This document shows positions 1 through 62,859 of a DNA stretch of 64,000 nucleotides, piece by piece. The DNA comes from Acanthosoma haemorrhoidale (Eukaryota > Arthropoda > Insecta > Hemiptera > Acanthosomatidae): NCBI GenBank assembly GCA_930367205.1, contig OV884015.1, forward strand, positions 107,758,509 through 107,822,508, in the 5' to 3' direction. How positions within the stretch are numbered: position 1 is the first letter of the stretch; each line of letters begins with the position of its first letter. Under the pieces are notes generated by a model. That model was not told the origin of the DNA. It ran no database searches and saw only the letters and a program-made list of their open reading frames with translations. Position numbers and translations under genes: made by a program.

Positions 1-3000
1 CTACAACCAAATATAGAGAAATGACACATATTCAATGTTCATTCAACACACAACCAAGTTGTCAAGGTGCACGGCTCAAATAAACTATATGAAGTGGTCA
101 CTAGTGAGGGACATGTATCTTATATTGAACAGGTAATAAGATAAAGAATCTCGATAACAGGAATGCAGCTTGTGAACAATGAATGTTCTTCCCTACCACC
201 AAATATACATAAATGACACATATTCAATGTTCATTCAACACACAACCAAGTTGTCAAGGTGAACGGCTCAAATAAACTATATGAAGCAGTCACCAGTGAG
301 GGACCTGTATCTTATATTGAACAGGTAATAAGATAATGAATCTTGATAACAGGAATGCAGCTTGTGAACAATGAATGTTCTTCCCTACCACCAAATATAG
401 ATAAATGACACATATTCAATGTTCATTCAACACACAACCAAGTTGTCAAGGTGCACGGCTAAAATAAACTATATGAAGTGGTCACCAGTGAGGGACCTGT
501 ATCTTATATTGAACAGGTAATAAGATAAAGAATCTCGATAACAGGAATGCAGCTTGTGAACAATGAATGTTCTTCCCTACCACCAAATATAGATAAATGA
601 CACATATTCAATGTTCATTCAACACACAACCAAGTTGTCAAGGTGAACGGCTCAAATAAACTATATGAAGCAGTCACCAGTGAGGGACCTGTATCTTATA
701 TTGAACAGGTAATAAGACAATAAATCTCGATAACAGGAATGGAGCTTGTGAACAATGAATGTTCGTCACCACAACGAAATATAGAGAAATGACACATATT
801 CAATGTTCATTCAACACACAACCAACTTGTCAAGGTGAACGGCTCAAATAAACCATATGAAGCGGTCACCAGTGAGGGACCTGTATCTTATATTGAACAG
901 GTAATATGATAAAGAATCTCGATAACAGGAATGCAGCTTGTGAACAATGAATGTTCTTCCCTACCACCAAATATAGATAAATGACACATATTCAATGTTC
1001 ATTCAACACACAACCAAGTTGTCAAGGTGAACGGCTCAAATAAACCATATGAAGCGGTCACCAGTGAGGGACCTGTATCTTATATTGAACAGGTAATAAG
1101 ATAAAGAATCTCGATAACAGGAATGCAGCTTGTGAACAATGAATGTTCTTCCCTACAAGCAGATATAGATAAATGACACATATTCAATGTTCATTCAACA
1201 CACAACCAAGTTGTCAAGGTGAACGGCTCAAATAAACCATATGAAGCAGTCACCAGTGAGGGACCTGTATCTTATATTGAACAGGTAATAAGACAAAGAA
1301 TCTCGATAACAGGAATGGAGCTTGTGAACAATGAATGTTCTTCCCTACAAGCAGATATAGATAAATGACACATATTCAATGTTCATTCAACACACAACCA
1401 AGTTGTCAAGGTGAACGGCTCAAATAAACCATATGAAGCAGTCACCAGTGAGGGACCTGTATCTTATATTGAACAGGTAATAAGATAAAGAATCTCGATA
1501 ACAGGAATGGAGCTTGTGAACAATGAATGTTCTTCCCTACAAGCAAATATAGATAAATGACACATATTCAATGTTCATTCAACACACAACCAAGTTGTCA
1601 AGGTGCACGGCTCAAATAAACTATATAAAGCGGTCACCAGTGAGAGACCTGTATCTTATATTGAACAGGTAATAAGACAAAGAATCTCGATAACAGGAAT
1701 GGAGCTTGTGAACAATGAATGTTCTTCACTACAACCAAATATAGAGAAATGAAACATATTCAATGTTCATTCAACACACAACCAAGTTGTCAAGGTGCAC
1801 GGCTCAAATAAACCATATGAAGTGGCCACCAGTGAGGGACCTGTATCTTATATTGAACAGGTAATAAGACAAAGAATCTCGATAACAGGAATGGAGCTTG
1901 TGAACAATGAATGTACTTCCTACAACCAAATATAGAGAAATGACACATATTCAATGTTCATTCAACACACAACCAAGTTGTCAAGGTGCACGGCTCAAAT
2001 AAACCATATGAAGTGGCCACCAGTGAGGGACCTGTATCTTATATTGAACAGGTAATAAGATAAAGAAAGTAGAAGAGGAATGGAGCTTGTGAACAATGAA
2101 TGTTCTTCCCTACCACCAAATATAGATAAATGACACATATTCAATGTTCATTCAACACACAACCAAGTTGTCAAGGGGCATGGCTCAAATAAACCATATG
2201 AAGTGGCCACCAGTGAGGGACCTGTATATTATATTGAACAGGTAATAAGATAAAGAAAGTAGAAGAGGAATGGAGCTTGTGAACAATGAATGTTCTTCCC
2301 TACAAGAAAATATAGATAAATGACACATATTCAATGTTCATTCAACACACAACCAAGTTGTCAAGGTGCACGGCTAAAATAAACCAAATGAAGCAGCCAC
2401 CAGTGAGGGACCTGTATCTTATATTGAACAGGTAATAACACAAAGAATCTCGATAACAGGAATGGAGCTTGTGAACAATGAATGTTCTTCACTACAACCA
2501 AATATAGAGAAATGACACATATTCAATGTTCATTCAACACACAACCAAGTTGTCAAGGTGCACGGCTCAAATAAACCATATGAAGCGGTCACCAGTGAGA
2601 GACCTGTATCTTATATTGAACAGGTAATAAGATAAAGAATCTCGATAACAGGAATGGAGCTTGTGAACAATGAATGTTCTTCCCTACAAGCAGATATAGA
2701 TAAATGACACATATTCAATGTTCATTCAACACACAACCAAGTTGTCAAGGTGAACGGCTCAAATAAACCATATGAAGCAGTCACCAGTGAGGGACCTGTA
2801 TCTTATATTGAACAGGTAATAAGATAAAGAATCTCGATAACAGGAATGGAGCTTGTGAACAATGAATGTTCTTCCCTACAAGCAAATATAGATAAATGAC
2901 ACATATTCAATGTTCATTCAACACACAACCAAGTTGTCAAGGTGCACGGCTCAAATAAACTATATAAAGCGGTCACCAGTGAGAGACCTGTATCTTATAT

Positions 3001-5549
3001 TGAACAGGTAATAAGACAAAGAATCTCGATAACAGGAATGGAGCTTGTGAACAATGAATGTTCTTCACTACAACCAAATATAGAGAAATGAAACATATTC
3101 AATGTTCATTCAACACACAACCAAGTTGTCAAGGTGCACGGCTCAAATAAACCATATGAAGTGGCCACCAGTGAGGGACCTGTATCTTATATTGAACAGG
3201 TAATAAGATAAAGAAAGTAGAAGAGGAATGGAGCTTGTGAACAATGAATGTTCTTCCCTACAAGCAAATATAGATAAATGACACATATTCAATGTTCATT
3301 CAACACACAACCAAGTTGTCAAGGTGCACGGCTCAAATAAACCATATGAAGTGGCCACCAGTGAGGGACCTGTATCTTATATTGAACAGGTAATAAGATA
3401 AAGAAAGTAGAAGAGGAATGGAGCTTGTGAACAATGAATGTTCTTCCCTACAAGCAAATATAGATAAATGACACATATTCAATGTTCATTCAACACACAA
3501 CCAAGTTGTCAAGGTGAACGGCTCAAATAAACTATATGAAGCGGTCACCAGTGAGAGACCTGTATCTTATATTGAACAGGTAACAAGACAAAGAATCTCG
3601 ATAACATGAATGGAGCTTGTGAACAATGAATGTTCTTCACTACAACCAAATATAGAGAAATGACACATATTCAATGTTCATTCAACACACAACCAAGTTG
3701 TCAAGGTGCACGGCTCAAATAAACCATATGAAGTGGCCACCAGTGAGGGACCTGTATCTTATATTGAACAGGTAATAAGATAAAGAAAGTAGAAGAGGAA
3801 TGGAGCTTGTGAACAATGAATGTTCTTCACTACAACCAAATATAGAGAAATGACACATATTCAATGTTCATTCAACACACAACCAAATTGTCAAGGTGCA
3901 CGGCTCAAATAAACCATATAAAGTGGCCACCAGTGAGGGACCTGTATCTTATATTGAACAGGTAATAAGACAAAAAATCTCGATAACAGGAATGCAGCTT
4001 GTGAACAATGAATGTTCGTCACCACAACCAAATATAGAGAAATGACACATATTCAATGTTCATTCAACACACAACCAACTTGTCAAGGTGCACGGCTCAA
4101 ATAAACTATATAAAGCGGTCACTAGTGAGGGACCTGTATCTTATATTGAACGGGTAATAAGATAAAGAATCTCGATAACAGGAATGGAGCTTGTGAACAA
4201 TGAATGTTCTTCCCTACCACCAAATATAGATAAATGACACATATTCAATGTTCATTCAACACACAACCAAGTTGTCAAGGTGCACGGGTCAAATAAACCA
4301 TATGAAGCAGCCACCAGTGAGGGACCTGTATCTTATATTCAACAGGGAATAAGATAAAGAAAATCAAACAGGAATGGAGCTTGTGAACAATGAATGTTCT
4401 TCCCTACAACCAAATATAGATAAATGACACATATTCAATGTTCATTCAACACACAACCAAGTTGTCAAGGTGCATGGCTAAAATAAACTATATGAAGTGG
4501 TCACCAGTGAGGGACCTGTATCTTATATTGAACAGGTAATAAGATAAAGAATCTCGATAACAGGAATGCAGCTTGTGAACAATGAATGTTCTTCCCTACA
4601 AGCAGATATAGATAAATGACACATATTCAATGTTCATTCAACACACAACCAAGTTGTCAAGGTGAACGGCTCAAATAAACCATATGAAGCAGTCACCAGT
4701 GAGGGACCTGTATCTTATATTGAACAGGTAATAAGACAATAAATCTCGATAACAGGAATGGAGCTTGTGAACAATGAATGTTCTTCCCTACAACCAAATA
4801 TAGATAAATGACACATATTCAATGTTTCTTCAACACACAACCAAGTTGTCAAGGTGCACGGCTCAAATAAACCATATGAAGTGGCCACCAGTGAGGAACC
4901 TGTATCTTATATTGAACAGGTAATAAGATAAAGAAAGTAGAAGAGGAATGGAGCTTGTGAACAATGAATGTTCTTCACTACAACCAAATATAGAGAAATG
5001 ACACATATTCAATGTTCATTCAACACACAACCAAATTGTCAAGGTGCACGGCTCAAATAAACCATATAAAGTGGCCACCAGTGAGGGACCTGTATCTTAT
5101 ATTGAACAGGTAATAAGACAAAAAATCTCGATAACAGGAATGCAGCTTGTGAACAATGAATGTTCGTCACCACAACGAAATATAGAGAAATGACACATAT
5201 TCAATGTTCATTCAACACACAACCAACTTGTCAAGGTGCACGGCTCAAATAAACTATATAAAGCGGTCACTAGTGAGGGACCTGTATCTTATATTGAACG
5301 GGTAATAAGATAAAGAATCTCGATAACAGGAATGGAGCTTGTGAACAATGAATGTTCTTCCCTACAAGCAAATATAGATAAATGACACATATTCAATGTT
5401 CATTCAACACACAACCAAGTTGTCAAGGTGCACGGGTCAAATAAACCATATGAAGCAGCCACCAGTGAGGGACCTGTATCTTATATTCAACAGGGAATAA
5501 GATAAAGAAAATCAAACAGGAATGGAGCTTGTGAACAATGAATGTTCTT

Positions 5550-6890
5550 CACTACAACCAAATATAGAGAAATGACACATATTCAATGTTCATTCAACAC
5601 ACAACCAAGTTGTCAAGGTGCACGGCTCAAATAAACTATATGAAGTGGTCACTAGTGAGGGACATGTATCTTATATTGAACAGGTAATAAGATAAAGAAT
5701 CTCGATAACAGGAATGCAGCTTGTGAACAATGAATGTTCTTCCCTACCACCAAATATACATAAATGACACATATTCAATGTTCATTCAACACACAACCAA
5801 GTTGTCAAGGTGAACGGCTCAAATAAACTATATGAAGCAGTCACCAGTGAGGGACCTGTATCTTATATTGAACAGGTAATAAGATAATGAATCTTGATAA
5901 CAGGAATGCAGCTTGTGAACAATGAATGTTCTTCCCTACCACCAAATATAGATAAATGACACATATTCAATGTTCATTCAACACACAACCAAGTTGTCAA
6001 GGTGCACGGCTAAAATAAACTATATGAAGTGGTCACCAGTGAGGGACCTGTATCTTATATTGAACAGGTAATAAGATAAAGAATCTCGATAACAGGAATG
6101 CAGCTTGTGAACAATGAATGTTCTTCCCTACCACCAAATATAGATAAATGACACATATTCAATGTTCATTCAACACACAACCAAGTTGTCAAGGTGAACG
6201 GCTCAAATAAACTATATGAAGCAGTCACCAGTGAGGGACCTGTATCTTATATTGAACAGGTAATAAGACAATAAATCTCGATAACAGGAATGGAGCTTGT
6301 GAACAATGAATGTTCGTCACCACAACGAAATATAGAGAAATGACACATATTCAATGTTCATTCAACACACAACCAACTTGTCAAGGTGAACGGCTCAAAT
6401 AAACCATATGAAGCGGTCACCAGTGAGGGACCTGTATCTTATATTGAACAGGTAATATGATAAAGAATCTCGATAACAGGAATGCAGCTTGTGAACAATG
6501 AATGTTCTTCCCTACCACCAAATATAGATAAATGACACATATTCAATGTTCATTCAACACACAACCAAGTTGTCAAGGTGAACGGCTCAAATAAACCATA
6601 TGAAGCGGTCACCAGTGAGGGACCTGTATCTTATATTGAACAGGTAATAAGATAAAGAATCTCGATAACAGGAATGCAGCTTGTGAACAATGAATGTTCT
6701 TCCCTACAAGCAGATATAGATAAATGACACATATTCAATGTTCATTCAACACACAACCAAGTTGTCAAGGTGAACGGCTCAAATAAACCATATGAAGCAG
6801 TCACCAGTGAGGGACCTGTATCTTATATTGAACAGGTAATAAGACAATAAATCTCGATAACAGGAATGGAGCTTGTGAACAATGAATGTT
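5550..6890. repeat. Higher-order satellite block (reference copy)
   Basis: This run of about seven monomers carries a fixed order of rare variants: GACATGTATC (5661), TACATAAATG (near 5757), TAATGAATCTTG (near 5886), CTAAAATAAAC (near 6011), ACAATAAATCTCG (near 6268), CGTCACCACAACG (near 6313) and GTAATATGAT (near 6451). The same order recurs from 1, from about 9389, and in part from about 7590 and 8570. These are therefore duplicated multi-monomer units rather than independently drifting monomers. Confidence 0.85.
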
Positions 6891-9388
6891 CTTCCCTACA
6901 ACCAAATATAGATAAATGACACATATTCAATGTTTCTTCAACACACAACCAAGTTGTCAAGGTGCACGGCTCAAATAAACCATATGAAGTGGCCACCAGT
7001 GAGGAACCTGTATCTTATATTGAACAGGTAATAAGATAAAGAAAGTAGAAGAGGAATGGAGCTTGTGAACAATGAATGTTCTTCACTACAACCAAATATA
7101 GAGAAATGACACATATTCAATGTTCATTCAACACACAACCAAATTGTCAAGGTGCACGGCTCAAATAAACCATATAAAGTGGCCACCAGTGAGGGACCTG
7201 TATCTTATATTGAACAGGTAATAAGACAAAAAATCTCGATAACAGGAATGCAGCTTTTGAACAATGAATGTTCGTCACCACAACGAAATATAGAGAAATG
7301 ACACATATTCAATGTTCATTCAACACACAACCAACTTGTCAAGGTGCACGGCTCAAATAAACTATATAAAGCGGTCACTAGTGAGGGACCTGTATCTTAT
7401 ATTGAACGGGTAATAAGATAAAGAATCTCGATAACAGGAATGGAGCTTGTGAACAATGAATGTTCTTCCCTACAAGCAAATATAGATAAATGACACATAT
7501 TCAATGTTCATTCAACACACAACCAAGTTGTCAAGGTGCACGGGTCAAATAAACCATATGAAGCAGCCACCAGTGAGGGACCTGTATCTTATATTGAACA
7601 GGTAATAAGATAATGAATCTTGATAACAGGAATGCAGCTTGTGAACAATGAATGTTCTTCCCTACCACCAAATATAGATAAATGACACATATTCAATGTT
7701 CATTCAACACACAACCAAGTTGTCAAGGTGCACGGCTAAAATAAACTATATGAAGTGGTCACCAGTGAGGGACCTGTATCTTATATTGAACAGGTAATAA
7801 GATAAAGAATCTCGATAACAGGAATGCAGCTTGTGAACAATGAATGTTCTTCCCTACCACCAAATATAGATAAATGACACATATTCAATGTTCATTCAAC
7901 ACACAACCAAGTTGTCAAGGTGAACGGCTCAAATAAACTATATGAAGCAGTCACCAGTGAGGGACCTGTATCTTATATTGAACAGGTAATAAGACAATAA
8001 ATCTCGATAACAGGAATGGAGCTTGTGAACAATGAATGTTCGTCACCACAACGAAATATAGAGAAATGACACATATTCAATGTTCATTCAACACACAACC
8101 AACTTGTCAAGGTGAACGGCTCAAATAAACCATATGAAGCGGTCACCAGTGAGGGACCTGTATCTTATATTGAACAGGTAATATGATAAAGAATCTCGAT
8201 AACAGGAATGCAGCTTGTGAACAATGAATGTTCTTCCCTACCACCAAATATAGATAAATGACACATATTCAATGTTCATTCAACACACAACCAAGTTGTC
8301 AAGGTGAACGGCTCAAATAAACCATATGAAGCGGTCACCAGTGAGGGACCTGTATCTTATATTGAACAGGTAATAAGATAAAGAATCTCGATAACAGGAA
8401 TGCAGCTTGTGAACAATGAATGTTCTTCCCTACAAGCAGATATAGATAAATGACACATATTCAATGTTCATTCAACACACAACCAAGTTGTCAAGGTGAA
8501 CGGCTCAAATAAACCATATGAAGCAGTCACCAGTGAGGGACCTGTATCTTATATTGAACAGGTAATAAGACAATAAATCTCGATAACAGGAATGGAGCTT
8601 GTGAACAATGAATGTTCGTCACCACAACGAAATATAGAGAAATGACACATATTCAATGTTCATTCAACACACAACCAACTTGTCAAGGTGAACGGCTCAA
8701 ATAAACCATATGAAGCGGTCACCAGTGAGGGACCTGTATCTTATATTGAACAGGTAATATGATAAAGAATCTCGATAACAGGAATGCAGCTTGTGAACAA
8801 TGAATGTTCTTCCCTACCACCAAATATAGATAAATGACACATATTCAATGTTCATTCAACACACAACCAAGTTGTCAAGGTGCACGGCTCAAATAAACCA
8901 TATAAAGTGGCCACCAGTGAGGGACCTGTATCTTATATTGAACAGGTAATAAGACAAAAAATCTCGATAACAGGAATGCAGCTTGTGAACAATGAATGTT
9001 CGTCACCACAACGAAATATAGAGAAATGACACATATTCAATGTTCATTCAACACACAACCAACTTGTCAAGGTGCACGGCTCAAATAAACTATATAAAGC
9101 GGTCACTAGTGAGGGACCTGTATCTTATATTGAACGGGTAATAAGATAAAGAATCTCGATAACAGGAATGGAGCTTGTGAACAATGAATGTTCTTCCCTA
9201 CAAGCAAATATAGATAAATGACACATATTCAATGTTCATTCAACACACAACCAAGTTGTCAAGGTGCACGGGTCAAATAAACCATATGAAGCAGCCACCA
9301 GTGAGGGACCTGTATCTTATATTCAACAGGGAATAAGATAAAGAAAATCAAACAGGAATGGAGCTTGTGAACAATGAATGTTCTTCAC

Positions 9389-10500
9389 TACAACCAAATA
9401 TAGAGAAATGACACATATTCAATGTTCATTCAACACACAACCAAGTTGTCAAGGTGCACGGCTCAAATAAACTATATGAAGTGGTCACTAGTGAGGGACA
9501 TGTATCTTATATTGAACAGGTAATAAGATAAAGAATCTCGATAACAGGAATGCAGCTTGTGAACAATGAATGTTCTTCCCTACCACCAAATATACATAAA
9601 TGACACATATTCAATGTTCATTCAACACACAACCAAGTTGTCAAGGTGAACGGCTCAAATAAACTATATGAAGCAGTCACCAGTGAGGGACCTGTATCTT
9701 ATATTGAACAGGTAATAAGATAATGAATCTTGATAACAGGAATGCAGCTTGTGAACAATGAATGTTCTTCCCTACCACCAAATATAGATAAATGACACAT
9801 ATTCAATGTTCATTCAACACACAACCAAGTTGTCAAGGTGCACGGCTAAAATAAACTATATGAAGTGGTCACCAGTGAGGGACCTGTATCTTATATTGAA
9901 CAGGTAATAAGATAAAGAATCTCGATAACAGGAATGCAGCTTGTGAACAATGAATGTTCTTCCCTACCACCAAATATAGATAAATGACACATATTCAATG
10001 TTCATTCAACACACAACCAAGTTGTCAAGGTGAACGGCTCAAATAAACTATATGAAGCAGTCACCAGTGAGGGACCTGTATCTTATATTGAACAGGTAAT
10101 AAGACAATAAATCTCGATAACAGGAATGGAGCTTGTGAACAATGAATGTTCGTCACCACAACGAAATATAGAGAAATGACACATATTCAATGTTCATTCA
10201 ACACACAACCAACTTGTCAAGGTGAACGGCTCAAATAAACCATATGAAGCGGTCACCAGTGAGGGACCTGTATCTTATATTGAACAGGTAATATGATAAA
10301 GAATCTCGATAACAGGAACGCAGCTTGTGAACAATGAATGTTCTTCCCTACCACCAAATATAGATAAATGACACATATTCAATGTTCATTCAACACACAA
10401 CCAAGTTGTCAAGGTGAACGGCTCAAATAAACCATATGAAGCGGTCACCAGTGAGGGACCTGTATCTTATATTGAACAGGTAATAAGATAAAGAATCTCG
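9389..10500. repeat. Higher-order satellite block, copy
   Basis: This block repeats the variant order of the 5550 block: GACATG at 9497, TACAT near 9593, TAATGAATCTTG near 9721, CTAAAATAAAC near 9846, CGTCACC near 10150 and GTAATATGAT near 10288. The offset from the 5550 block is about 3836 bp, or 20 monomers. Confidence 0.8.
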
Positions 10501-12664
10501 ATAACAGGAATGCAGCTTGTGAACAATGAATGTTCTTCCCTACCACCGAATATAGATAAATGACACATATTCAATGTTCATTCAACACACAACCAAGTTG
10601 TCAAGGTGAACGGCTGAAATAAACCATATGAAGAAGTCACCAGTGAGGGACCTGTATCTTATATTGAACAGGTAATAAGATAAAGAATCTCGATAACAGG
10701 AATGCAGCTTGTGAACAATGAATGTTCTTCCCTACCACCGAATATAGATAAATGACACATATTCAATGTTCATTCAACACACAACCAAGTTGTCAAGGTG
10801 AACGGCTGAAATAAACCATATGAAGAAGTCACCAGTGAGGGACCTGTATCTTATATTGAACAGGTAATAAGATAAAGAATCTCGATAACAGGAATGCAGC
10901 TTGTGAACAATGAATGTTCTTCCCTACCACCAAATATAGATAAATGACACATATTCAACGTTCATTCAACTCACAACCAAATTGTCAAGGGGCACGGCTC
11001 AAATAAACCATATGAAGCGGTCACCAGTGAGAGACCTGTATCTTATATTGAACAGGTAATAAGATAAAGAATCTCGATAACAGGAATGGAGCTTGTGAAC
11101 AATGAATGTTCTTCCATACAAGCAAATATAGATAAATGACACATATTCAATGTTCATTCAACACACAACCAAGTTGTCAAGGTGCACGGCTCAAATAAAC
11201 TATATGAAGCGGTCACCAGTGAGGGACCTGTATCTTATATTGAACAGGTAATAAGATAAAGAATCTCGATAACAGGAATGCAGCTTGTGAACAATGAATG
11301 TTCTTCCCTACCACCAAATATAGATAAATGACACATATTCAACGTTCATTCAACACACAACCAAGTTGTCAAGGAGCACGGCTCAAATAAACTATATGAA
11401 GCGGTCACCAGTGAGGGACCTGTATCTTATATTGAACAGGTAATAAGATAAAGAATCTCGATAACAGGAATGCAGCTTGTGAACAATGAATGTTCTTCCC
11501 TACCACCAAATATAGATAAATGACACATATTCAACGTTCATTCAACTCACAACCAAATTGTCAAGGTGAACGGCTCAAATAAACCATATAAAGTGGCCAC
11601 CAGTGAGGGACCTGTATCTTATATTGAACAGGTAATAAGACAAAAAATCTCGATAACAGGAATGCAGCTTGTGAACAATGAATGTTCGTCACCACAACCA
11701 AATATAGAGAAATGACACATATTCAACGTTCATTCAACACACAACCAAGTTGTCAAGGTGCACGGCTCAAATAAACCATATGAAGCGGTCACCAGTGAGG
11801 GACCTGTATCTTATATTGAACAGGTAATAAGATAAAGAATCTTGATAACAGGAATGCAGCTTGTGAACAATGAATGTTCTTCACTACAACCAAATATAGA
11901 GAAATGACATATATTCAACGTTCATTCAACACACAACCAAGTTGTCAAGGTGCACGGCTCAAATAAACTATATGAAGCAGTCACCAGTGAGGGACCTGTA
12001 TCTTATATTGAACAGGTAATAAGATAAAGAATCTCGATAACAGGAATGCAGCTTGTGAACAATGAATGTTCTTCCCTACCACCAAATATAGATAAATGAC
12101 ACATATTCAATGTTCATTCAACACACAACCAAGTTGTCAAGGTGAACGGCTCAAATAAACCTTATGAAGCAGTCACCAGTGAGGGACCTGTATCTTATAT
12201 TGAACAGGTAATAAGATAAAGAATCTCGATAACAGGAATGCAGCTTGTGAACAATGAATGTTCTTCCCTACAAGCAGATATAGATAAATGACACATATTC
12301 AATGTTCATTCAACACACAACCAAGTTGTCAAGGTGCACGGCTCAAATGAACTATATGAAGTGGTCACGAGTGAGGGACCTGTATATTATATTGAACAGG
12401 TAATAAGATAAAGAAAGTAGAAGAGGAATGGAGCTTGTGAACAATGAATGTACTTCCTACAACCAAATATAGAGAAATGACACATATTTAATGTTCATTA
12501 AACACACAACCAAGTTGTCAATGCGTACGGCTCAAATAAACCATATGAAGCAGTCACCGGTGAGGGACCTGTATCTTATATTGAACAGGTAATAAGATAA
12601 AGAAAATCGAACAGGAATGGAGCTTGTGAAAAATGAATGTTCTTTCTTACAACCAAATATTGAC

Positions 12665-14169: not shown

Positions 14170-14174
14170 CAATC
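14170..14174. repeat. Target-site duplication, left
   Basis: CAATC lies immediately outside the left LTR and matches 19884-19888 exactly. A duplication of about 5 bp is usual for BEL/Pao integrases. Confidence 0.9.
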
Positions 14175-15029
14175 TGTTTACGCTGAACTACCCGTGGAGT
14201 ATTATATACTTCCAAGTGATAATTCAAACACAGGTTGGTTCATTAGCATGAACTAGTGGACTGTAAATTAATGAAAATAAGAGTTGATGCCAATTCACAA
14301 TACATTTATTCTAAAATTAAACAGAATATTATATAAAAAAAAAATTTCATAAAAAAAATGAGGAGCAAAATAAAATACCATTAATAATAATAAAATTTGC
14401 CAATGTAAGACAGACTGGTTTCAAAAAATAAAAAAATGTCTTTTATTCTTAATAATTAAAGGAATTAACCAAATTCTCGTCACTTTTAGTGTATATATGA
14501 AATAAGTGTATATTCACGCAGCGGCAAGTTGCAGTTCAAGTGCTCTCGCGGGTGCGGGCTGCAAACAAAACGTAGAGCTGTCGTCATCAGGTTGAGGCTC
14601 AAAAAAAAAATCCAACCGCAGGGCGGCGATTCCAAGCTCCAAGGGGAACGTCGAATATCATATAGGTATGATTTTGGCCAAATGGCCAATCAAGTCTGAG
14701 ATCGGTACACCTCAACCCTTCAGACGTTACCTCAACACTGACGTAAATGGGCTTGGGCCCACAAGTTCCCCTACCAAAAGTCCAAAGTGCCACTGTCCTA
14801 GGTATGGAATTCTCCTTTAGGTATTTAACTTAGATTACAATTTAATCTTACGAAATAAAATTAACAGAAATTATATTATACAATCATATTTTACATGAAC
14901 AATAAAAAAAACGATTCTTATTAAGTTTTTTACGTCAGTAACAAAAATAATAAATAATTAAATCTAACAAACAAATTAATTTTTTACTTCACTTTTCCAA
15001 CAAAACAAAAACTTTATCTGGCCTTAACA
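14175..15029 (-). repeat. BEL element 3' LTR
   Basis: This 855-bp LTR starts on the plus strand with TGTTTACGCTGAAC and ends with TATCTGGCCTTAACA. By eye it matches 19028-19883 except for one A in the run before TGAGGAGC (8 A here, 9 in the other LTR). It contains a GC-richer island near 14515-14815 inside otherwise AT-rich sequence. That island encodes two overlapping short frames discussed with the solo LTR at 61879-62859. Confidence 0.95.
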
Positions 15030-15045
15030 TACCGCCCACCAAATT
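15030..15045 (-). other. Purine-rich tract before the 3' LTR
   Basis: Directly upstream of the 3' LTR, the minus strand reads TTTGGTGGGCGGTA. This G-rich stretch sits where the plus-strand primer (polypurine tract) of a retroelement belongs. It is short and interrupted, so the exact primer is uncertain. Confidence 0.5.
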
Positions 15046-15090
15046 TTCATTGAAAATTTCAAAGGTTAACATGAATTTATTGTGGCCATA

Positions 15091-15651
15091 TTAGTTGGCC
15101 CCTGTTTGTGGTAGCAATGGTGCCAATCTGGAAACAGCCCGCTTGTACTCTCCTTTTGGAGTTTTAACTTTTACCACTCTAACTATCCCACCTTTCCCAG
15201 GATAAATTTCAATTATTCGACCGGTGGGCCAATTTTGCACTGATACGTTGGGTTCTTTTAGTAAAACTAATGTTCCAACAGTCAAATCTGGCTTTGAGGA
15301 AGTCCACTTCGTCCGTTGTTGTAGACTGTTTAGGTAGTCGTAACGCCATCTTGTCCAGATGTCTTGAATGCAACGCTGTACAATTTGCCACCTCGTTAAT
15401 CTGTTTTCTGGTATGTCTGTCAAGTTAGGTGTAGGCAATGACAACAAGGGGGCCCCAATTAAAAAATGACCAGGTGACAGCACATCATATTCACTAGGAG
15501 AGGAGGAAATGGGGTACAATGGTCGAGAGTTGAGGACGGCCTCAATTTTAGCCACAAGAGTACTCAGTTTTTCAGTTTGATCAAAAATCAGAGACTTGAG
15601 AGGTGAAATGACAATAGTTGTTCCTCTGCTCAGCACCGGTGGCAGGTGATA
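15091..15651 (-). pseudogene. In-frame continuation: BLM motif Ia joined to BEL integrase C-terminus
   Basis: This segment continues the same reading frame after the single TGA at 15652-15654. Counting from the first internal Met (15636), residues 1-26 are helicase sequence with the motif Ia block TIVISPLKSLIFDQ. From about residue 27 it is the BEL integrase end: the EAVLNSRPL block, which carries the third catalytic acid, then SPGHFLIG (54-61), a TRW-RWRYDYL block (81-101), and a C-terminal beta-domain with WPTGRIIEIYPGKGGIVRVV (136-155). The stop is at 15091-15093. The catalytic D-D part of integrase is missing. It is translated only if the TGA is read through, or from a separate internal start. 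Confidence 0.82.
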
Positions 15652-16645
15652 TCACAAAGATTTACCTCCACCAGTCGGCATAAGTATAAAATAGTCGTAA
15701 TTCAACATAGCAGCATTGATGGCTTCCATTTGGTTTGGACGAAATTTATGAAGTCCAAATTTTGTGCGGAATACCTTCATCATCTCAACTGAATGTGGAT
15801 AATTTGTTAAATTGAATTCCTTGGTACTACTTTCAATAACATTTTCCATGCTACATTGTGTAGGCTCAAAGTCTTTCGGACTTTCGCTATAACTAAATGA
15901 TGTATGAGAAATGTTAGCAGTTTTTGTAGGTTTAGAAAACACAGGGGTGTATTGAGTCATTAGTTCTTCATCTCTAGGAAATGACATATTCGATGCTTGA
16001 GGCGTTGAATTTAGAAATGACATATTCGATGCTTGAGGCGTTGAATTTAGAAATGACATATTCGATGCTTGTGGCGTTGAATTTGGAAATGAGATACTCG
16101 ATGACTGTGGTGTTGTGGATAAATGTGGAGCCAAGTTTGCCTTAAGTTCATTTCTATTATTAACAATCGCCTGATCAACAGGTCTTGCAGGTACTTTGAC
16201 TGGTAAAGCTCTATTTTCTTTATCGGAGAAATTTGAACTGAAACTATTCAAATTTTCAATATTTTGAGCACTGGGCCGCATCGGATTGGAATTTTCAGAT
16301 GGCAATGGTTTTCTAGAGGCAGAATTTGCACCGCTTGAAACAGAAGGACTCGTGCTCATGAGCAGTTTTGAAGGTTGTTTTAATTTGAAACCTCCGACAG
16401 AAGGTGATTTAGTTTGTTTAACAAAACCATCTTGTGGCGCGTCCTCGAAATAACTATTTGATAGTTCTTCCCCACTTCTGCTGAAACTATATGGTGCTCT
16501 AATAATATCTGATTCTTGGGACATTTGACCGTTCAGGGGAAAATCCGAGTCTATACTATCAACAAGATTAACTGTACTAAGTTCAGAACGGACTGAATTC
16601 TTGTTTAATAAACAAGAATTCGAACCTTGAGGTAAAGCAAATGAA
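15558..16645 (-). other. BLM-like: Captured BLM/RecQ helicase segment (about 1.09 kb)
   Basis: The stretch lies between the BEL pol linker and the BEL integrase C-terminus and stays in frame with both. The firm part is its last 75 or so residues, which match the start of the BLM-family RecQ core: the FGLHKFRPNQMEAINAA block before motif I, Walker A TGGGKS, and motif Ia ISPLKSL. The preceding 280 residues are low-complexity, like the disordered N-terminus of BLM proteins, and I infer from contiguity that they share this origin. No intron is visible, so capture from processed RNA is likely. Motifs II-VI are absent, so it cannot be an active helicase. Confidence 0.78.
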
Positions 16646-18846
16646 TCCCTTTTGATCATATCATTATCCAAATAATCTTGCAAAACTGCTGAATATTCTT
16701 TTCGTTTAAGCGGATGATTATTAAAATCAAATTCCAAACGTTGAAATCTTTTTTGAGCCACGTTACGAGAATTGTTAAAATATATAGAACGTTCGTCCCT
16801 GAAGGGCAACTGTACAATATAGCGCCCACTTTCATTGCGAGAGTGTGTCTTCGAAAAGTGGGATTCACATTTAACGTCGTCAGGATTCTCCAGACTGATG
16901 TGTTCGAGTTCTTCGATTTTCCAAACTTTCTCTATAATAGAATTTAGGGACTCGTCTGTGGTCAATAGTACCCTTTGTGGTGAGTGTGAGTTATTATCAG
17001 GTAAGGATCCTAAGATTACTCCTCCAAATACTGTATTTAAAATATTGGGACAACTAGAGGCTTTGTTGAAATTGCTGAGAATATCCAGAAATAAATCTGC
17101 TCCTAAAAGGAAATCTATAGGACCTGGTTTCCAAAAGGAAGGGTCCGATAGATCCTCACAACTTAATTGTCTCCTAATTTGCTCAGAAATTGGCTGAGAA
17201 GGCATATTATTGCTTATTTGCTGAATAATTACAGCATTTGTTCTCAACTTTGGATTATCAGAGTTTAATGGAACCAAGATACAGTCTACTTGCTGAGACC
17301 CTCCAGCAATAGGGCTGCTTGCAAATCCACAGAGTCTGTGGGGGTTGTGAGAGGGGATCAATTTCAATTTTTTAGCACATGAAGCCGTAATAAATGAACG
17401 TTGTGCTCCACTGTCAATTACAATTCTTATTTGATGATAGTTACCTACATTGTCTTTTATTCTAGCCAAAGCAGTACCAAGTAAAACGTTTACCTTTCCA
17501 TCTAGAGAAGTGGAAAAAACAGCACTTCTAGATGTATCAGTTGCAACCTGACAATGTTCCGAAACTGGATTCAAAGAATTATTTTTAAATTCTTCCTCAA
17601 CAGGAAGTGCAGGTATAACCGAGTTACCCCAGTGCAATAAGGAATGGTGTTTTTTATTACAATAGCGACATAATTTATTTGACTGGCAATCAACATTTTT
17701 ATGATTTTCAGAAAGGCAATTGGAACATACATTCAATGGCTTTAATTTATTAAAACGTTTATATGGACTAAGCTCCAAGAATTTAGGGCAACGATACAAC
17801 ACATGCTTTTCCCTACATAAGGGACAGGAGTGAGAAATTCGTTGTCCTGACGAGTAAAAAATTTGTTTCACCCCTTTAGGGTAAGTTTTATTGCTATTCC
17901 AATAACTGGACTCACTTGGGGTAGATAAAGCTTGAGATTGAAATGCAACACATTGCTGAGAAATTAGGTCAACTAGATTTTGGAAAGAAGGAAGTTCCTC
18001 CTTCACTGATTGTAAAGTCTCAAACCGCTCACGGGTTTTGGGGTCTAGCAGTCTTAGTGCAAAGGTAAGCAAAACAAACCCAGATTCATCCTCAATTTCT
18101 AAATGTTTGAATGCTGTTACACTCTCTAGCACAATCTCTGAAAATCGTTCCAAAGAAGTTAAATTACATTGTTGTAATGGCTTGAAAGTAAAAATTCTTG
18201 CAAGCAAATTGGTAGCTTGAATTCGTTTGTTGTCATACCGTTTCGTCAAACTGAGCCACGCCTGTGGATAATCAGGGGCAGTAATTGGAATGGATGCCAC
18301 ACATTGCAGGGCAGGGCCTTTTAAGGACGATTTGAGGTAATGAAACTTTTGAATAGGCGATAAGGATCGATTTTCATGAATTAATGAAACATAAGTGTCT
18401 TTGAATGAAGTCCACTTTGTCAGCTCACCGTGAAAGGAAGGAAGATTTATAGAGGGCAGTTTGAATAAGGGATTTTGGGTTTCCGTTGAAGATGAATTCA
18501 ACGTTTGATCTAGGGTTGATTGTTCTCGGTCAAGTGATAACGCTTCATAAAAATGATTGCGAACCTCCTTTCTTATCCTGTCATACTCAGTGCAATCTTT
18601 GTCTAGTAATTTAGCATATCGTTTCACATCTGTGACAGTTTTGTTAAACTTTTGGAAAGTAGCGTCTAATCGTGATAGTCTAGCTTTAAAAACAGGAAGT
18701 TGTTCTGAATTTTCAGTTACAGCATGACCTAATTCCTTTGTTTCTTTTATATCGTCCCTTAAGTCCTCAAATTCGTCATGTAGGGTACTCCACGTTCCTT
18801 CATAGTCTGGTTTGTCAACTTTTGGACCCATTTTTAGTTTAAACAA
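15652..18846 (-). CDS. BEL Gag-protease fused to BLM-like helicase start
   Basis: The frame encodes 1064 residues, ending at a TGA. Residues about 1-410 are BEL-type Gag: a helical N-terminus, the conserved LPSINLPSFHGELTKW block (130-145), and three zinc clusters, CPLC-H-YRC (341-353), a CX2CX4HX4C knuckle (374-387) and CRYC-HH-H (393-405). Residues about 450-610 are the aspartic protease domain, with catalytic DSGAQRSFI at 478-486 and LLGADLF at 580-586. Residues 658-727 are the linker that normally leads into reverse transcriptase (THSRNESGRYIVQLPF). After about residue 735 the BEL similarity stops. A Ser/Asn/Pro-rich tract follows, with four 12-residue repeats near 920-960, and then a RecQ/BLM block (1020-1064) with VFRTKFGLHKFRPNQ and FILMPTGGGKSL. 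The RT, RNase H and integrase catalytic domains are absent. The first ATG is supported by its position about 180 bp inside the 5' LTR. Confidence 0.88.
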   Translation of the reverse strand: MFKLKMGPKVDKPDYEGTWSTLHDEFEDLRDDIKETKELGHAVTENSEQLPVFKARLSRLDATFQKFNKTVTDVKRYAKLLDKDCTEYDRIRKEVRNHFYEALSLDREQSTLDQTLNSSSTETQNPLFKLPSINLPSFHGELTKWTSFKDTYVSLIHENRSLSPIQKFHYLKSSLKGPALQCVASIPITAPDYPQAWLSLTKRYDNKRIQATNLLARIFTFKPLQQCNLTSLERFSEIVLESVTAFKHLEIEDESGFVLLTFALRLLDPKTRERFETLQSVKEELPSFQNLVDLISQQCVAFQSQALSTPSESSYWNSNKTYPKGVKQIFYSSGQRISHSCPLCREKHVLYRCPKFLELSPYKRFNKLKPLNVCSNCLSENHKNVDCQSNKLCRYCNKKHHSLLHWGNSVIPALPVEEEFKNNSLNPVSEHCQVATDTSRSAVFSTSLDGKVNVLLGTALARIKDNVGNYHQIRIVIDSGAQRSFITASCAKKLKLIPSHNPHRLCGFASSPIAGGSQQVDCILVPLNSDNPKLRTNAVIIQQISNNMPSQPISEQIRRQLSCEDLSDPSFWKPGPIDFLLGADLFLDILSNFNKASSCPNILNTVFGGVILGSLPDNNSHSPQRVLLTTDESLNSIIEKVWKIEELEHISLENPDDVKCESHFSKTHSRNESGRYIVQLPFRDERSIYFNNSRNVAQKRFQRLEFDFNNHPLKRKEYSAVLQDYLDNDMIKRDSFALPQGSNSCLLNKNSVRSELSTVNLVDSIDSDFPLNGQMSQESDIIRAPYSFSRSGEELSNSYFEDAPQDGFVKQTKSPSVGGFKLKQPSKLLMSTSPSVSSGANSASRKPLPSENSNPMRPSAQNIENLNSFSSNFSDKENRALPVKVPARPVDQAIVNNRNELKANLAPHLSTTPQSSSISFPNSTPQASNMSFLNSTPQASNMSFLNSTPQASNMSFPRDEELMTQYTPVFSKPTKTANISHTSFSYSESPKDFEPTQCSMENVIESSTKEFNLTNYPHSVEMMKVFRTKFGLHKFRPNQMEAINAAMLNYDYFILMPTGGGKSL
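15981..16124 (-). repeat. 36-bp coding tandem repeat
   Basis: Four units with an exact 36-bp period start at 15981, 16017, 16053 and 16089; the last is diverged. They encode the 12-residue repeat NSTPQASNMSFL within the inferred BLM N-terminal tract. Because the period is a multiple of three, copy number can change without breaking the frame. Confidence 0.9.
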
Positions 18847-19005
18847 AAAAAATAAAAAATTTAAAAAAATTAATTAAAATGCAAATAACGATAGGTTTCC
18901 CAACTGGCACCTAACAATTGCTGAAATGTGTAAATTACATGCAATTAAACGTAAATTAAATAGTTAATCTAAAGATTAAATAAATAAATGCTAGAATGTA
19001 TTGTG

Positions 19006-19023
19006 ATCCGGCCCGGAGGACCA
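19006..19023 (-). other. Primer-binding site (tRNA-Tyr-like)
   Basis: Four bases inside the 5' LTR, the minus strand reads TGGTCCTCCGGGCCGGAT. This is complementary to a tRNA 3' end ATCCGGCCCGGAGGACCA. The ATCCGGC...GAGGACCA pattern resembles animal tRNA-Tyr 3' ends, but I recall that only approximately. The position and the TGG start are what a reverse-transcription primer site requires. Confidence 0.75.
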
Positions 19024-19027
19024 ATTA

Positions 19028-19883
19028 TGTTTACGCTGAACTACCCGTGGAGTATTATATACTTCCAAGTGATAATTCAAACACAGGTTGGTTCATTAGC
19101 ATGAACTAGTGGACTGTAAATTAATGAAAATAAGAGTTGATGCCAATTCACAATACATTTATTCTAAAATTAAACAGAATATTATATAAAAAAAAAATTT
19201 CATAAAAAAAAATGAGGAGCAAAATAAAATACCATTAATAATAATAAAATTTGCCAATGTAAGACAGACTGGTTTCAAAAAATAAAAAAATGTCTTTTAT
19301 TCTTAATAATTAAAGGAATTAACCAAATTCTCGTCACTTTTAGTGTATATATGAAATAAGTGTATATTCACGCAGCGGCAAGTTGCAGTTCAAGTGCTCT
19401 CGCGGGTGCGGGCTGCAAACAAAACGTAGAGCTGTCGTCATCAGGTTGAGGCTCAAAAAAAAAATCCAACCGCAGGGCGGCGATTCCAAGCTCCAAGGGG
19501 AACGTCGAATATCATATAGGTATGATTTTGGCCAAATGGCCAATCAAGTCTGAGATCGGTACACCTCAACCCTTCAGACGTTACCTCAACACTGACGTAA
19601 ATGGGCTTGGGCCCACAAGTTCCCCTACCAAAAGTCCAAAGTGCCACTGTCCTAGGTATGGAATTCTCCTTTAGGTATTTAACTTAGATTACAATTTAAT
19701 CTTACGAAATAAAATTAACAGAAATTATATTATACAATCATATTTTACATGAACAATAAAAAAAACGATTCTTATTAAGTTTTTTACGTCAGTAACAAAA
19801 ATAATAAATAATTAAATCTAACAAACAAATTAATTTTTTACTTCACTTTTCCAACAAAACAAAAACTTTATCTGGCCTTAACA
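19028..19883 (-). repeat. BEL element 5' LTR
   Basis: This 856-bp LTR would carry the promoter for minus-strand transcription through the element. It matches the 3' LTR apart from one homopolymer base. The two LTRs are identical at insertion and then diverge, so this copy is young. Confidence 0.95.
19453..19647 (-). other. LTR-internal open frame, shifted copy
   Basis: This 64-codon frame starts MALWTFGRGTCGPK and ends at a T10 run (A10 on the plus strand). The identical frame lies in the other LTR at 14599-14793. In the solo LTR the run is T8, and the frame continues to 98 codons. It lies in the GC-richer island of the LTR. Whether it is translated is unknown, and it may be fortuitous. Confidence 0.4.
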
Positions 19884-19888
19884 CAATC
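19884..19888. repeat. Target-site duplication, right
   Basis: CAATC lies immediately outside the right LTR and pairs with 14170-14174. The intact pair shows that both element ends come from a single insertion event. Confidence 0.9.
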
Positions 19889-61878: not shown

Positions 61879-62859
61879 TGTTAAGGCCAGATAAAGTTTT
61901 TGTTTTGTTGGAAAAGTGAAGTAAATTGAATTAATTTTTTTTGGTCTTTATTTAAAAAATTAATTTGTTTGTTGGATTTAATTATTTATTATTTTCGTTA
62001 CTGACGTAAAAAAAAAAACTGTAAATAAAAATCGTCATTTTTTTTTATTGTTCATGTAAAATATGATTGTGTAATTTCTGTTCATTATATTTCGTAAGAT
62101 TAAATTGTAATCTAAGTTAAATACCTAAAGGAGAATTCCATACCTAGGACAGTGGCACTTTGGACTTTTGGTAGGGGAACTTGTGGGCCCAAGCCCATTT
62201 ACTTCAGTGTTGAGGTAACGTCTGAACAGTTAAGGTGTACCGATCTCAGACTTAATTGCCCATTTGGCCAAAATCATACCTATATGATATTTAACGTTCC
62301 CCTTGGAGCTTGGAATCGCCGCCCTGCGGTTGGATTTTTTTTGAGCCTCAACCTGACCACGACAGCTCTACGTTTTGTTTGCAGCCTGCACCCGCGAGAG
62401 CGCTTGAACTGCAACCTGCCGCTGCGTGAATATACACTTATTTCCTAATCAATTCCGTAATTGATTTGTTGCTGGTTGCCTTTTGAGTATTTATTTTGTT
62501 TAAATGGCATTATGTTTAACTTGGATGAGTTTATTGACAATTTAATTACAAGTGACGAGAATTTGGTTAATTCCTTTAATTATTAAGGATAAAAGACATT
62601 TTTTTATTTCGAAACCAGTCTGTCTTACATTGACAAATTTTATTATTATTAACCAGGCCTGGGTACTTTATTTTGCTCCTCATTTTTTTTTATGAAATTT
62701 TATAATATTCTGTTTAATTTTAGAATAAATATATTGTGAATTGGCATCAAATCTTATTTTCATTCATTTACAGTCCACTAGTTCATGCTAATGAACCAAC
62801 CTGTTTTTGAATTATCACTTGGAAGTATATAATACTCCACGGGTAGTTCAGCGTAAACA
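61879..62859 (+). repeat. Solo BEL LTR
   Basis: This is a single LTR of the same family as 14175-15029, in plus orientation: it starts TGTTAAGGCCAGATAAAG and ends GTTCAGCGTAAACA. The duplication GTTGG is exact at 61874-61878 and 62860-62864, so a full element inserted here and recombined out between its LTRs. It is 981 bp against 855. The extra 120 or so bases lie near 62448-62560 (AATCAATTCCGTAATTGATT onward), where the young copies have a short ATATATAC linker. Point differences are frequent, so this is an older or different subfamily. Confidence 0.92.
62152..62448 (+). other. 98-codon open frame inside the solo LTR
   Basis: The frame starts MALWTFGRGTCGPKPIYFSV and runs through GAWNRRPAVGFFLSL to LNCNLPLREYTLIS. 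The same island in the young LTRs is split into two frames because a T8 run here is T10 there. I do not recognise the product. Differences between copies do not look mainly synonymous, so translation is not supported; the island may be conserved for an RNA or promoter role. Confidence 0.4.

What the first reader, a model, noticed from the sequence alone, without database searches (positions are those of the whole stretch)
15558..16645. BEL/Pao retrotransposon carrying a captured Bloom-helicase segment in place of RT-RNaseH-integrase core
Seen: one minus-strand frame runs from BEL Gag and protease (DSGAQRSFI) into a RecQ/BLM block (VFRTKFGLHKFRPNQ, Walker A TGGGKS, ISPLKSL) and back into the BEL integrase C-terminus (EAVLNSRPL, SPGHFLIG). 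Both junctions keep the frame, and no intron is visible. Known: BEL elements have RT, RNase H and a full integrase between these points, and host-gene capture by LTR retrotransposons is rare in animals. Inference: RNA-level template switching onto a spliced host BLM transcript replaced about 2.5-3 kb of pol. The 3' junction lies at KLSTL/VAKIEA, where BEL integrases often have a similar T-L-L stretch, so microhomology may have guided the switch.
Basis: partly seen in the sequence, partly recalled or inferred. Interest (0 to 1): 0.95.

Follow-up and report, generated by a model that had tools for sequence, protein, structure and literature searches.

The report
BEL retrotransposon family carrying Bloom fragment
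In the hawthorn shieldbug, a virus-like jumping element lost its copying enzymes, took in part of the host's own Bloom DNA-repair helicase message instead, and has since spread to some three dozen places in the genome.

Summary
Window 14175-19883 (minus strand) is a complete BEL/Pao element: 5-bp TSD, LTRs without substitutions, open Gag-protease. The enzyme region of pol is replaced by 1.1 kb of Bloom helicase (BLM) coding sequence. Contig sizes identify the host as Acanthosoma haemorrhoidale. The host BLM gene has 668- and 209-bp introns exactly where the element has none. Thirty-six loci carry the 5' junction; of 27 complete LTR pairs, 24 have an exact TSD and 19 no mismatch. Five relatives with full-length frames were listed; all counts are lower bounds. 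The 5' junction lies in 13 nt shared by parent and BLM. One damaged locus (L046) keeps what looks like the original 3' junction: BLM runs into its next intron, then switches to integrase at 8 shared nt containing AATAAA. The common form lacks a further 791 nt. Best explanation: LTR-mediated retroposition by double template switching onto partly spliced BLM RNA, later deletion, amplification in trans. The mechanism is known; this is an unusually well documented, successful variant. No protein-level selection on BLM was detected.

The parts
14170..14174 (.). target-site duplication CAATC (left)
   Evidence: same 5 bp at 19884-19888
14175..15029 (-). 3' LTR in element sense, TG...CA
   Evidence: 0 substitutions and 1 one-base indel against 19028-19883
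15091..15563 (-). BEL integrase C-terminal part and DUF5641
   Evidence: Pfam DUF5641 E 1.6e-33; 57-60% identity to P0121, P0123 and P0124; 97% identical to three parent DNA stretches beside the junction
15564..15567 (-). present 3' junction: 4 nt in register shared by BLM exon and parent integrase (probable secondary deletion point)
   Evidence: 791-nt offset in L046
15564..16670 (-). captured BLM coding segment: N-terminal part and first part of the helicase domain; three exon parts joined without introns (joins at 15894/15893 and 15775/15774)
   Evidence: host gene L011, introns of 668 and 209 bp absent
15652..15654 (-). in-frame stop codon inside the BLM segment; of 36 loci 27 have a stop here, 5 do not, 4 were not scored
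15978..16103 (-). 36-bp tandem repeats within the BLM segment (3.5 units); segment length varies between copies
16658..16670 (-). 5' junction: 13 nt identical in parent BEL and host BLM
   Evidence: 0 of 1,000,000 random breakpoints gave a run of 13 or more
16671..18831 (-). Gag-protease coding region, open
19028..19883 (-). 5' LTR in element sense
19884..19888 (.). target-site duplication CAATC (right)

Best explanation
The window holds one young copy of a non-autonomous BEL/Pao retrotransposon family in Acanthosoma haemorrhoidale. Shown: the element has two LTRs, a TSD and open Gag-protease; its BLM segment is the host's own BLM coding sequence without two introns; the same 5' junction occurs at 36 loci; relatives with the same Gag and full-length frames exist. 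Inferred: while BEL RNA was being reverse transcribed, reverse transcriptase moved from the integrase region onto a partly spliced (perhaps intronically polyadenylated) BLM RNA at AAATAAAC, copied three exon parts, and moved back to BEL RNA within a shared 13-nt stretch. A later jump between short similar sequences removed the intron remnant and the remaining integrase core, giving the compact form. That form is moved by RT and integrase from parent BELs and, possibly, its own Gag, and seems to have become more numerous than the parents. The BLM part is most likely a passenger.
For: Element with substitution-free LTRs and a TSD. Host BLM gene with GT-AG introns of 668 and 209 bp exactly absent. 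36 chimeric loci, 5' junction in 36 of 36, four with a one-base difference. Of 27 complete LTR pairs by self-comparison, 19 have no mismatch, 17 mismatches in 23,081 bases in all, 24 with an exact TSD (one more, L019). Five loci with Gag at 98-99% identity and 1735-1742-codon frames, one with an internal stop. Shared runs of 13, 8 and 4 nt at the three junctions; random breakpoints reach such lengths in 0, 0.03% and 2.4% of 1,000,000 trials. L046 keeps BLM exon and intron followed by integrase. The stop label needs one change on the BLM tree, weakly supported.
Against: L046 is damaged and single, so the order of events rests on one locus. No RNA data. No inner branch of the tree reaches the tool's support mark (0 of 19). 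Constraint on Gag is doubtful: nonsynonymous deficit p 0.02 over all polymorphisms, but Gag and BLM do not differ in N:S (p 0.48) and shared Gag polymorphisms are 18 nonsynonymous to 5 synonymous. Copy counts are lower bounds on both sides. That the five relatives are autonomous is inferred from frame length and, at three, from integrase stretches.
Confidence: 0.92

Rival explanations
1. Assembly artefact joining a BEL element and a BLM sequence.
For: Reads were not examined here; the assembly gives one haplotype.
Against: The same 5' junction occurs at 36 loci on six chromosome-scale contigs, 24 of 27 complete LTR pairs having an exact TSD; intron-less sequence cannot come from misjoining the host gene.
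Confidence: 0.01
2. DNA-level origin: a BEL copy recombined with, or was gene-converted by, an existing intron-less BLM retrocopy.
For: Would also give intron-less BLM.
Against: Among the 58 matches none is a free-standing retrocopy: they are the 36 chimeric loci, the host exons and a repeat array; L046 contains the next BLM intron beside spliced exons; junction microhomology is as expected of reverse-transcriptase switching.
Confidence: 0.05
3. The present 3' junction is the original one, and L046 is a separate, later event.
For: L046 is a single, damaged locus; 32 of 36 loci have the compact 3' junction.
Against: L046 shares the 5' junction and continues contiguously into the native intron; simple deletion explains the compact form, whereas gain of the intron would need a second capture at the same place.
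Confidence: 0.1
4. The BLM part is retained because its protein or RNA benefits the element, for example as a Gag-fused decoy or as a shield against silencing.
For: Of 28 full-length matches, 21 have an open frame of 1054-1061 codons and five a longer one, two a shorter one; the chimeric form outnumbers the listed parents.
Against: No deficit of amino-acid changes in BLM (p 0.27); 27 of 36 loci carry a stop in the helicase part; only the first part of the helicase domain was captured. Young age alone explains open frames.
Confidence: 0.1

Closest known systems
LTR-mediated retroposition in metazoans (Tan et al. 2016, Genome Res 26:1663; not held, seen only as cited in passages of PMC5408686, PMC9674220 and PMC8277862)
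   Same: Template switching between LTR-element RNA and host mRNA at microsimilarities; an amplified case, the CG17604_r family, is named in PMC8277862.
   Different: Here a BEL/Pao element, host sequence replacing pol in frame, a probably partly spliced template kept in one locus, and 36 loci. Whether any case of Tan et al. shares these points was not checked.
Pxyfem retrocopies of Masculinizer in Plutella xylostella (PMC9674220, passages)
   Same: Insect LTR element and spliced host mRNA joined at a short shared sequence, then multiplied.
   Different: Pxyfem lies beside truncated LTR-element remnants on the W chromosome and yields antisense piRNAs; the shieldbug loci are mostly young elements with both LTRs, on several chromosomes, with BLM in sense; small RNAs unknown.
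Maize Bs1 (PMC5408686, passage: took part in retrocopies of three cellular genes)
   Same: LTR element with host gene parts.
   Different: Plant element; other details are recalled, not checked here.
TR-GAG and other non-autonomous LTR elements (names seen in a search listing; definition recalled)
   Same: LTRs and Gag kept, enzymes lost.
   Different: Here the lost enzymes were replaced by a host coding segment; whether such elements elsewhere carry captured genes was not checked.

Membership tests
BEL/Pao LTR retrotransposon | Two LTRs with TG...CA ends and a 5-bp TSD | tested here: met
BEL/Pao LTR retrotransposon | BEL-type Gag-protease and C-terminal DUF5641 related to intact BEL polyproteins | tested here: met
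   protease models are below Pfam's cut-off
BEL/Pao LTR retrotransposon (autonomous) | RT, RNase H and integrase core present | tested here: not met
   The region matching P0121 residues about 755-1591, which holds RVT_1, Peptidase_A17, Integrase_H2C2 (below cut-off) and rve (below cut-off), is absent; RNase H was not itself matched and its place there is recalled. So: a non-autonomous derivative.
LTR-mediated retroposition | Host segment lacks introns of its parent gene | tested here: met
   668- and 209-bp introns absent; but the start of the next intron is kept in L046
LTR-mediated retroposition | Microsimilarity at switch points | tested here: met
   13 and 8 nt at the inferred capture junctions, 4 nt at the later one
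LTR-mediated retroposition | Switching observed in virus-like particles or reverse transcripts | not testable with these tools
   needs RNA and particle data
LINE-type processed pseudogene | Free copy with poly(A) tail and its own TSD | tested here: not met
   the BLM segment lies between BEL sequences inside LTRs and one TSD pair
Functional BLM/RecQ helicase | Complete helicase region (in P0001: DEAD, Helicase_C, RecQ zinc-binding, RQC) | tested here: not met
   captured part ends early in the DEAD domain and carries a stop in the window copy

The most novel reading that the evidence does not exclude
The family is a transducing retrotransposon whose dozens of near-identical BLM segments act on the host: silencing of the element by small RNAs would also hit the BLM message, or the Gag-BLM fusion would draw off BLM partners, so that attacking the element harms the host's own genome-maintenance helicase. 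That would make captured host sequence a shield and explain why the chimeric form outnumbers its listed parents.
Probability: 0.08. Interest if true: 0.88.

Novelty: new variant of a known kind. Interest (0 to 1): 0.66.

Why it matters
It is an unusually complete case of host-gene capture by an LTR retrotransposon in an animal: donor gene, parent element, probable intermediate and amplified descendants lie in one assembly, with the switch points readable. It suggests that a partly spliced, possibly prematurely polyadenylated RNA can serve as donor, and that replacing pol with host sequence did not stop the element from spreading. It offers a natural test of whether silencing of a transposon that carries a host exon spills over to the host gene.

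Tried and rejected
Assembly artefact, LINE-type pseudogene, DNA-level recombination and functional helicase were considered and given low weight (see rivals and membership test). A conservation test of the window's BLM piece against 119 BLM proteins and a simple probability that its odd residues arose after insertion (3.3e-4) first suggested an older capture; the copy comparison replaced that argument, since those changes are polymorphic in the family. RNA folding around both junctions gave nothing unusual (z -0.83 and 1.12). Primer-binding site: the window copy's candidate string occurs exactly in only 7 of 36 loci, and most of the 29 loci examined differ, so no tRNA is assigned. Scans of viral contigs and genome contigs confirmed no relative. 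A third protein search with the BLM segment alone listed 19 proteins of 201-542 residues, 18 of them with a helicase Pfam domain; they were not looked at further. Passages of PMC3118150 on BEL/Pao elements hold no mention of host gene, chimeric or helicase. Evidence that Gag is under constraint is mixed. A genome-wide count by junction DNA did not complete.

Full report
What is there. On the minus strand, window 14175-19883 is a complete LTR element: 855- and 856-bp LTRs with no substitution and one one-base indel, TG...CA ends, and the TSD CAATC on both sides. After the 5' LTR comes an open Gag-protease region with DUF1759 (E 1.4e-28) and weak aspartyl-protease matches, and at the 3' end the BEL integrase C-terminus with DUF5641 (E 1.6e-33). 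Between them, 15564-16670 is BLM, with matches to human BLM chains (best E 1.5e-17) and to Halyomorpha halys Blm (E 6.4e-48). A stop at 15652-15654 breaks the frame. Compared with the intact BEL protein P0121, residues about 755-1591 are missing; Pfam places RVT_1 and Peptidase_A17 there, and weaker matches to the integrase zinc domain and core. RNase H was not matched by itself; that it lies there is recalled.

Host and host gene. The assembly holding the window has 865.6 Mb in 72 contigs, and its six contigs named here agree within 0.01 Mb with chromosomes 1-5 and X of Acanthosoma haemorrhoidale ihAcaHaem1.1, 866 Mb in 72 scaffolds (PMC9971695, passages including Table 2). The window lies on the contig that matches chromosome 5; the host BLM gene on the one that matches chromosome 1 (locus L011). 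The element matches three exon parts and lacks introns of 668 and 209 bp with GT-AG ends, exactly at the splice points. Outside the tandem-repeat block, 32 copies compared differ from the host gene by 6-16 of 967-968 sites, mean 1.0%.

A family, not an oddity. The BLM segment search gave 58 matches: 36 chimeric loci, the host gene in three exons, and a repeat array on contig C2; counts are lower bounds. I fetched the 35 loci besides the window. The 5' junction is present in 36 of 36, four with a one-base difference; the compact 3' junction in 32, the longer form in one (L046), and three loci (L041, L042, L047) end before it. By self-comparison 27 of 36 loci have a complete LTR pair of 800-900 bp; 19 of these show no mismatch, though some have indels, and the total is 17 mismatches in 23,081 bases, an upper figure because some alignments run past the LTR. 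Of the 27, 24 have an exact 5-bp TSD by the script; L019 has one; L020 and L045 showed none in register. L035, L036 and L037 also have two LTRs but were not counted; L035 and L036 look like a tandem pair sharing an LTR. L043 and L044 share one TSD and are probably a duplicated stretch, so independent insertions are fewer than 36. Five loci with the same Gag (98-99%) have 1735-1742-codon frames, one with an internal stop; only 62 of 1678 candidates were scored, and two further loci with this Gag (C2:89.9 Mb at 93%, C6:105.1 Mb at 98%, both broken) were not classified. Leader and LTR end are 97% identical to the window copy at the three parents sampled.

Junctions. Against three parents and the host gene, the 5' junction lies within TGGATAATGATAT, identical in both. 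In L046 the BLM part continues past the common 3' junction through the end of the exon and about 70-80 nt of the following intron, then passes to parent integrase at AAATAAAC. That stretch holds an AATAAA 72 nt after the exon end, so a BLM RNA polyadenylated in this intron is a possible donor; this is inference. The common form lacks 791 nt between CTGA in BLM and CTGA in integrase. Random breakpoints between the leader-Gag region and the BLM gene gave runs of at least 4, 8 and 13 nt in 2.4%, 0.03% and 0 of 1,000,000 trials; the 4-nt run is therefore weak evidence.

History and selection. On a tree of BLM pieces the stop label needs one change, but 0 of 19 inner branches reach the tool's support mark. 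Polymorphism among 32 copies gives pN/pS 0.61 for Gag-protease, 0.81 for BLM and 0.93 for the integrase tail; Gag and BLM do not differ in N:S (p 0.48). Nonsynonymous changes are in deficit in Gag (p 0.02) but not in BLM (0.27) or the tail (0.49), and Gag has fewer nonsynonymous changes per site than the other two together (p 0.004) with no difference in synonymous ones (p 0.57). However, in 26 Gag pieces of equal length, two probable duplicates left out, polymorphisms shared by two or more copies are 18 nonsynonymous to 5 synonymous, which shows no constraint. These tests treat sites as independent and are uncorrected for their number. So BLM looks like a passenger, and use of the element's own Gag is possible but not shown. 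LTR divergence of about 0.07% against BLM divergence of 1.0% places most insertions well after the capture; no clock was applied.

Comparison with what is known. Template switching between LTR-element RNA and host mRNA at microsimilarities is described in PMC5408686 (passages), PMC9674220 (passages) and PMC8277862 (passages), which cite Tan et al. 2016; that paper is not held. PMC8277862 also names an amplified LTR-mediated family. A chimeric BEL-BLM element was not seen in print in searches, which covered only the held library and of which I saw listings apart from the passages named. What appears new is the combination: BEL element, pol replaced in frame by a host repair-gene segment, with parent, probable intermediate and 36 loci in one genome.

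Noticed in passing
window 1-12660: Satellite array of about 66 units of 192 bp beginning at the window edge, 1.5 kb from the element.
   Followed up: no
window 61879-62859: Related LTR (about 92% identity) flanked by GTTGG on both sides and without an internal region: a solo LTR.
   Followed up: partly
window 16595-16621: 27-nt near-perfect palindrome just inside the 5' junction, also present in the host BLM gene; forms a hairpin, but the surrounding fold is not exceptional.
   Followed up: partly
window 15978-16103; BLM segments of the loci L013-L046: The BLM segment differs in length between copies (1020, 1056, 1058 and 1092 nt), largely by whole 36-bp units.
   Followed up: no
L043 and L044: Two loci 90 kb apart on contig C3 with the same TSD and identical LTR pairs: segmental or assembly duplicate.
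   Followed up: no
L035 and L036: Two chimeric internal regions about 4.8 kb apart that appear to share an LTR.
   Followed up: no
G000, contig C2 near 3.44 Mb: Array of matches (60-64%) to the repeat part of the BLM segment in frames of 593 and 923 codons; perhaps an unrelated repetitive protein.
   Followed up: no
G000, several contigs: Other BEL families at 40-45% Gag identity, many with open frames of about 1740-1790 codons.
   Followed up: no
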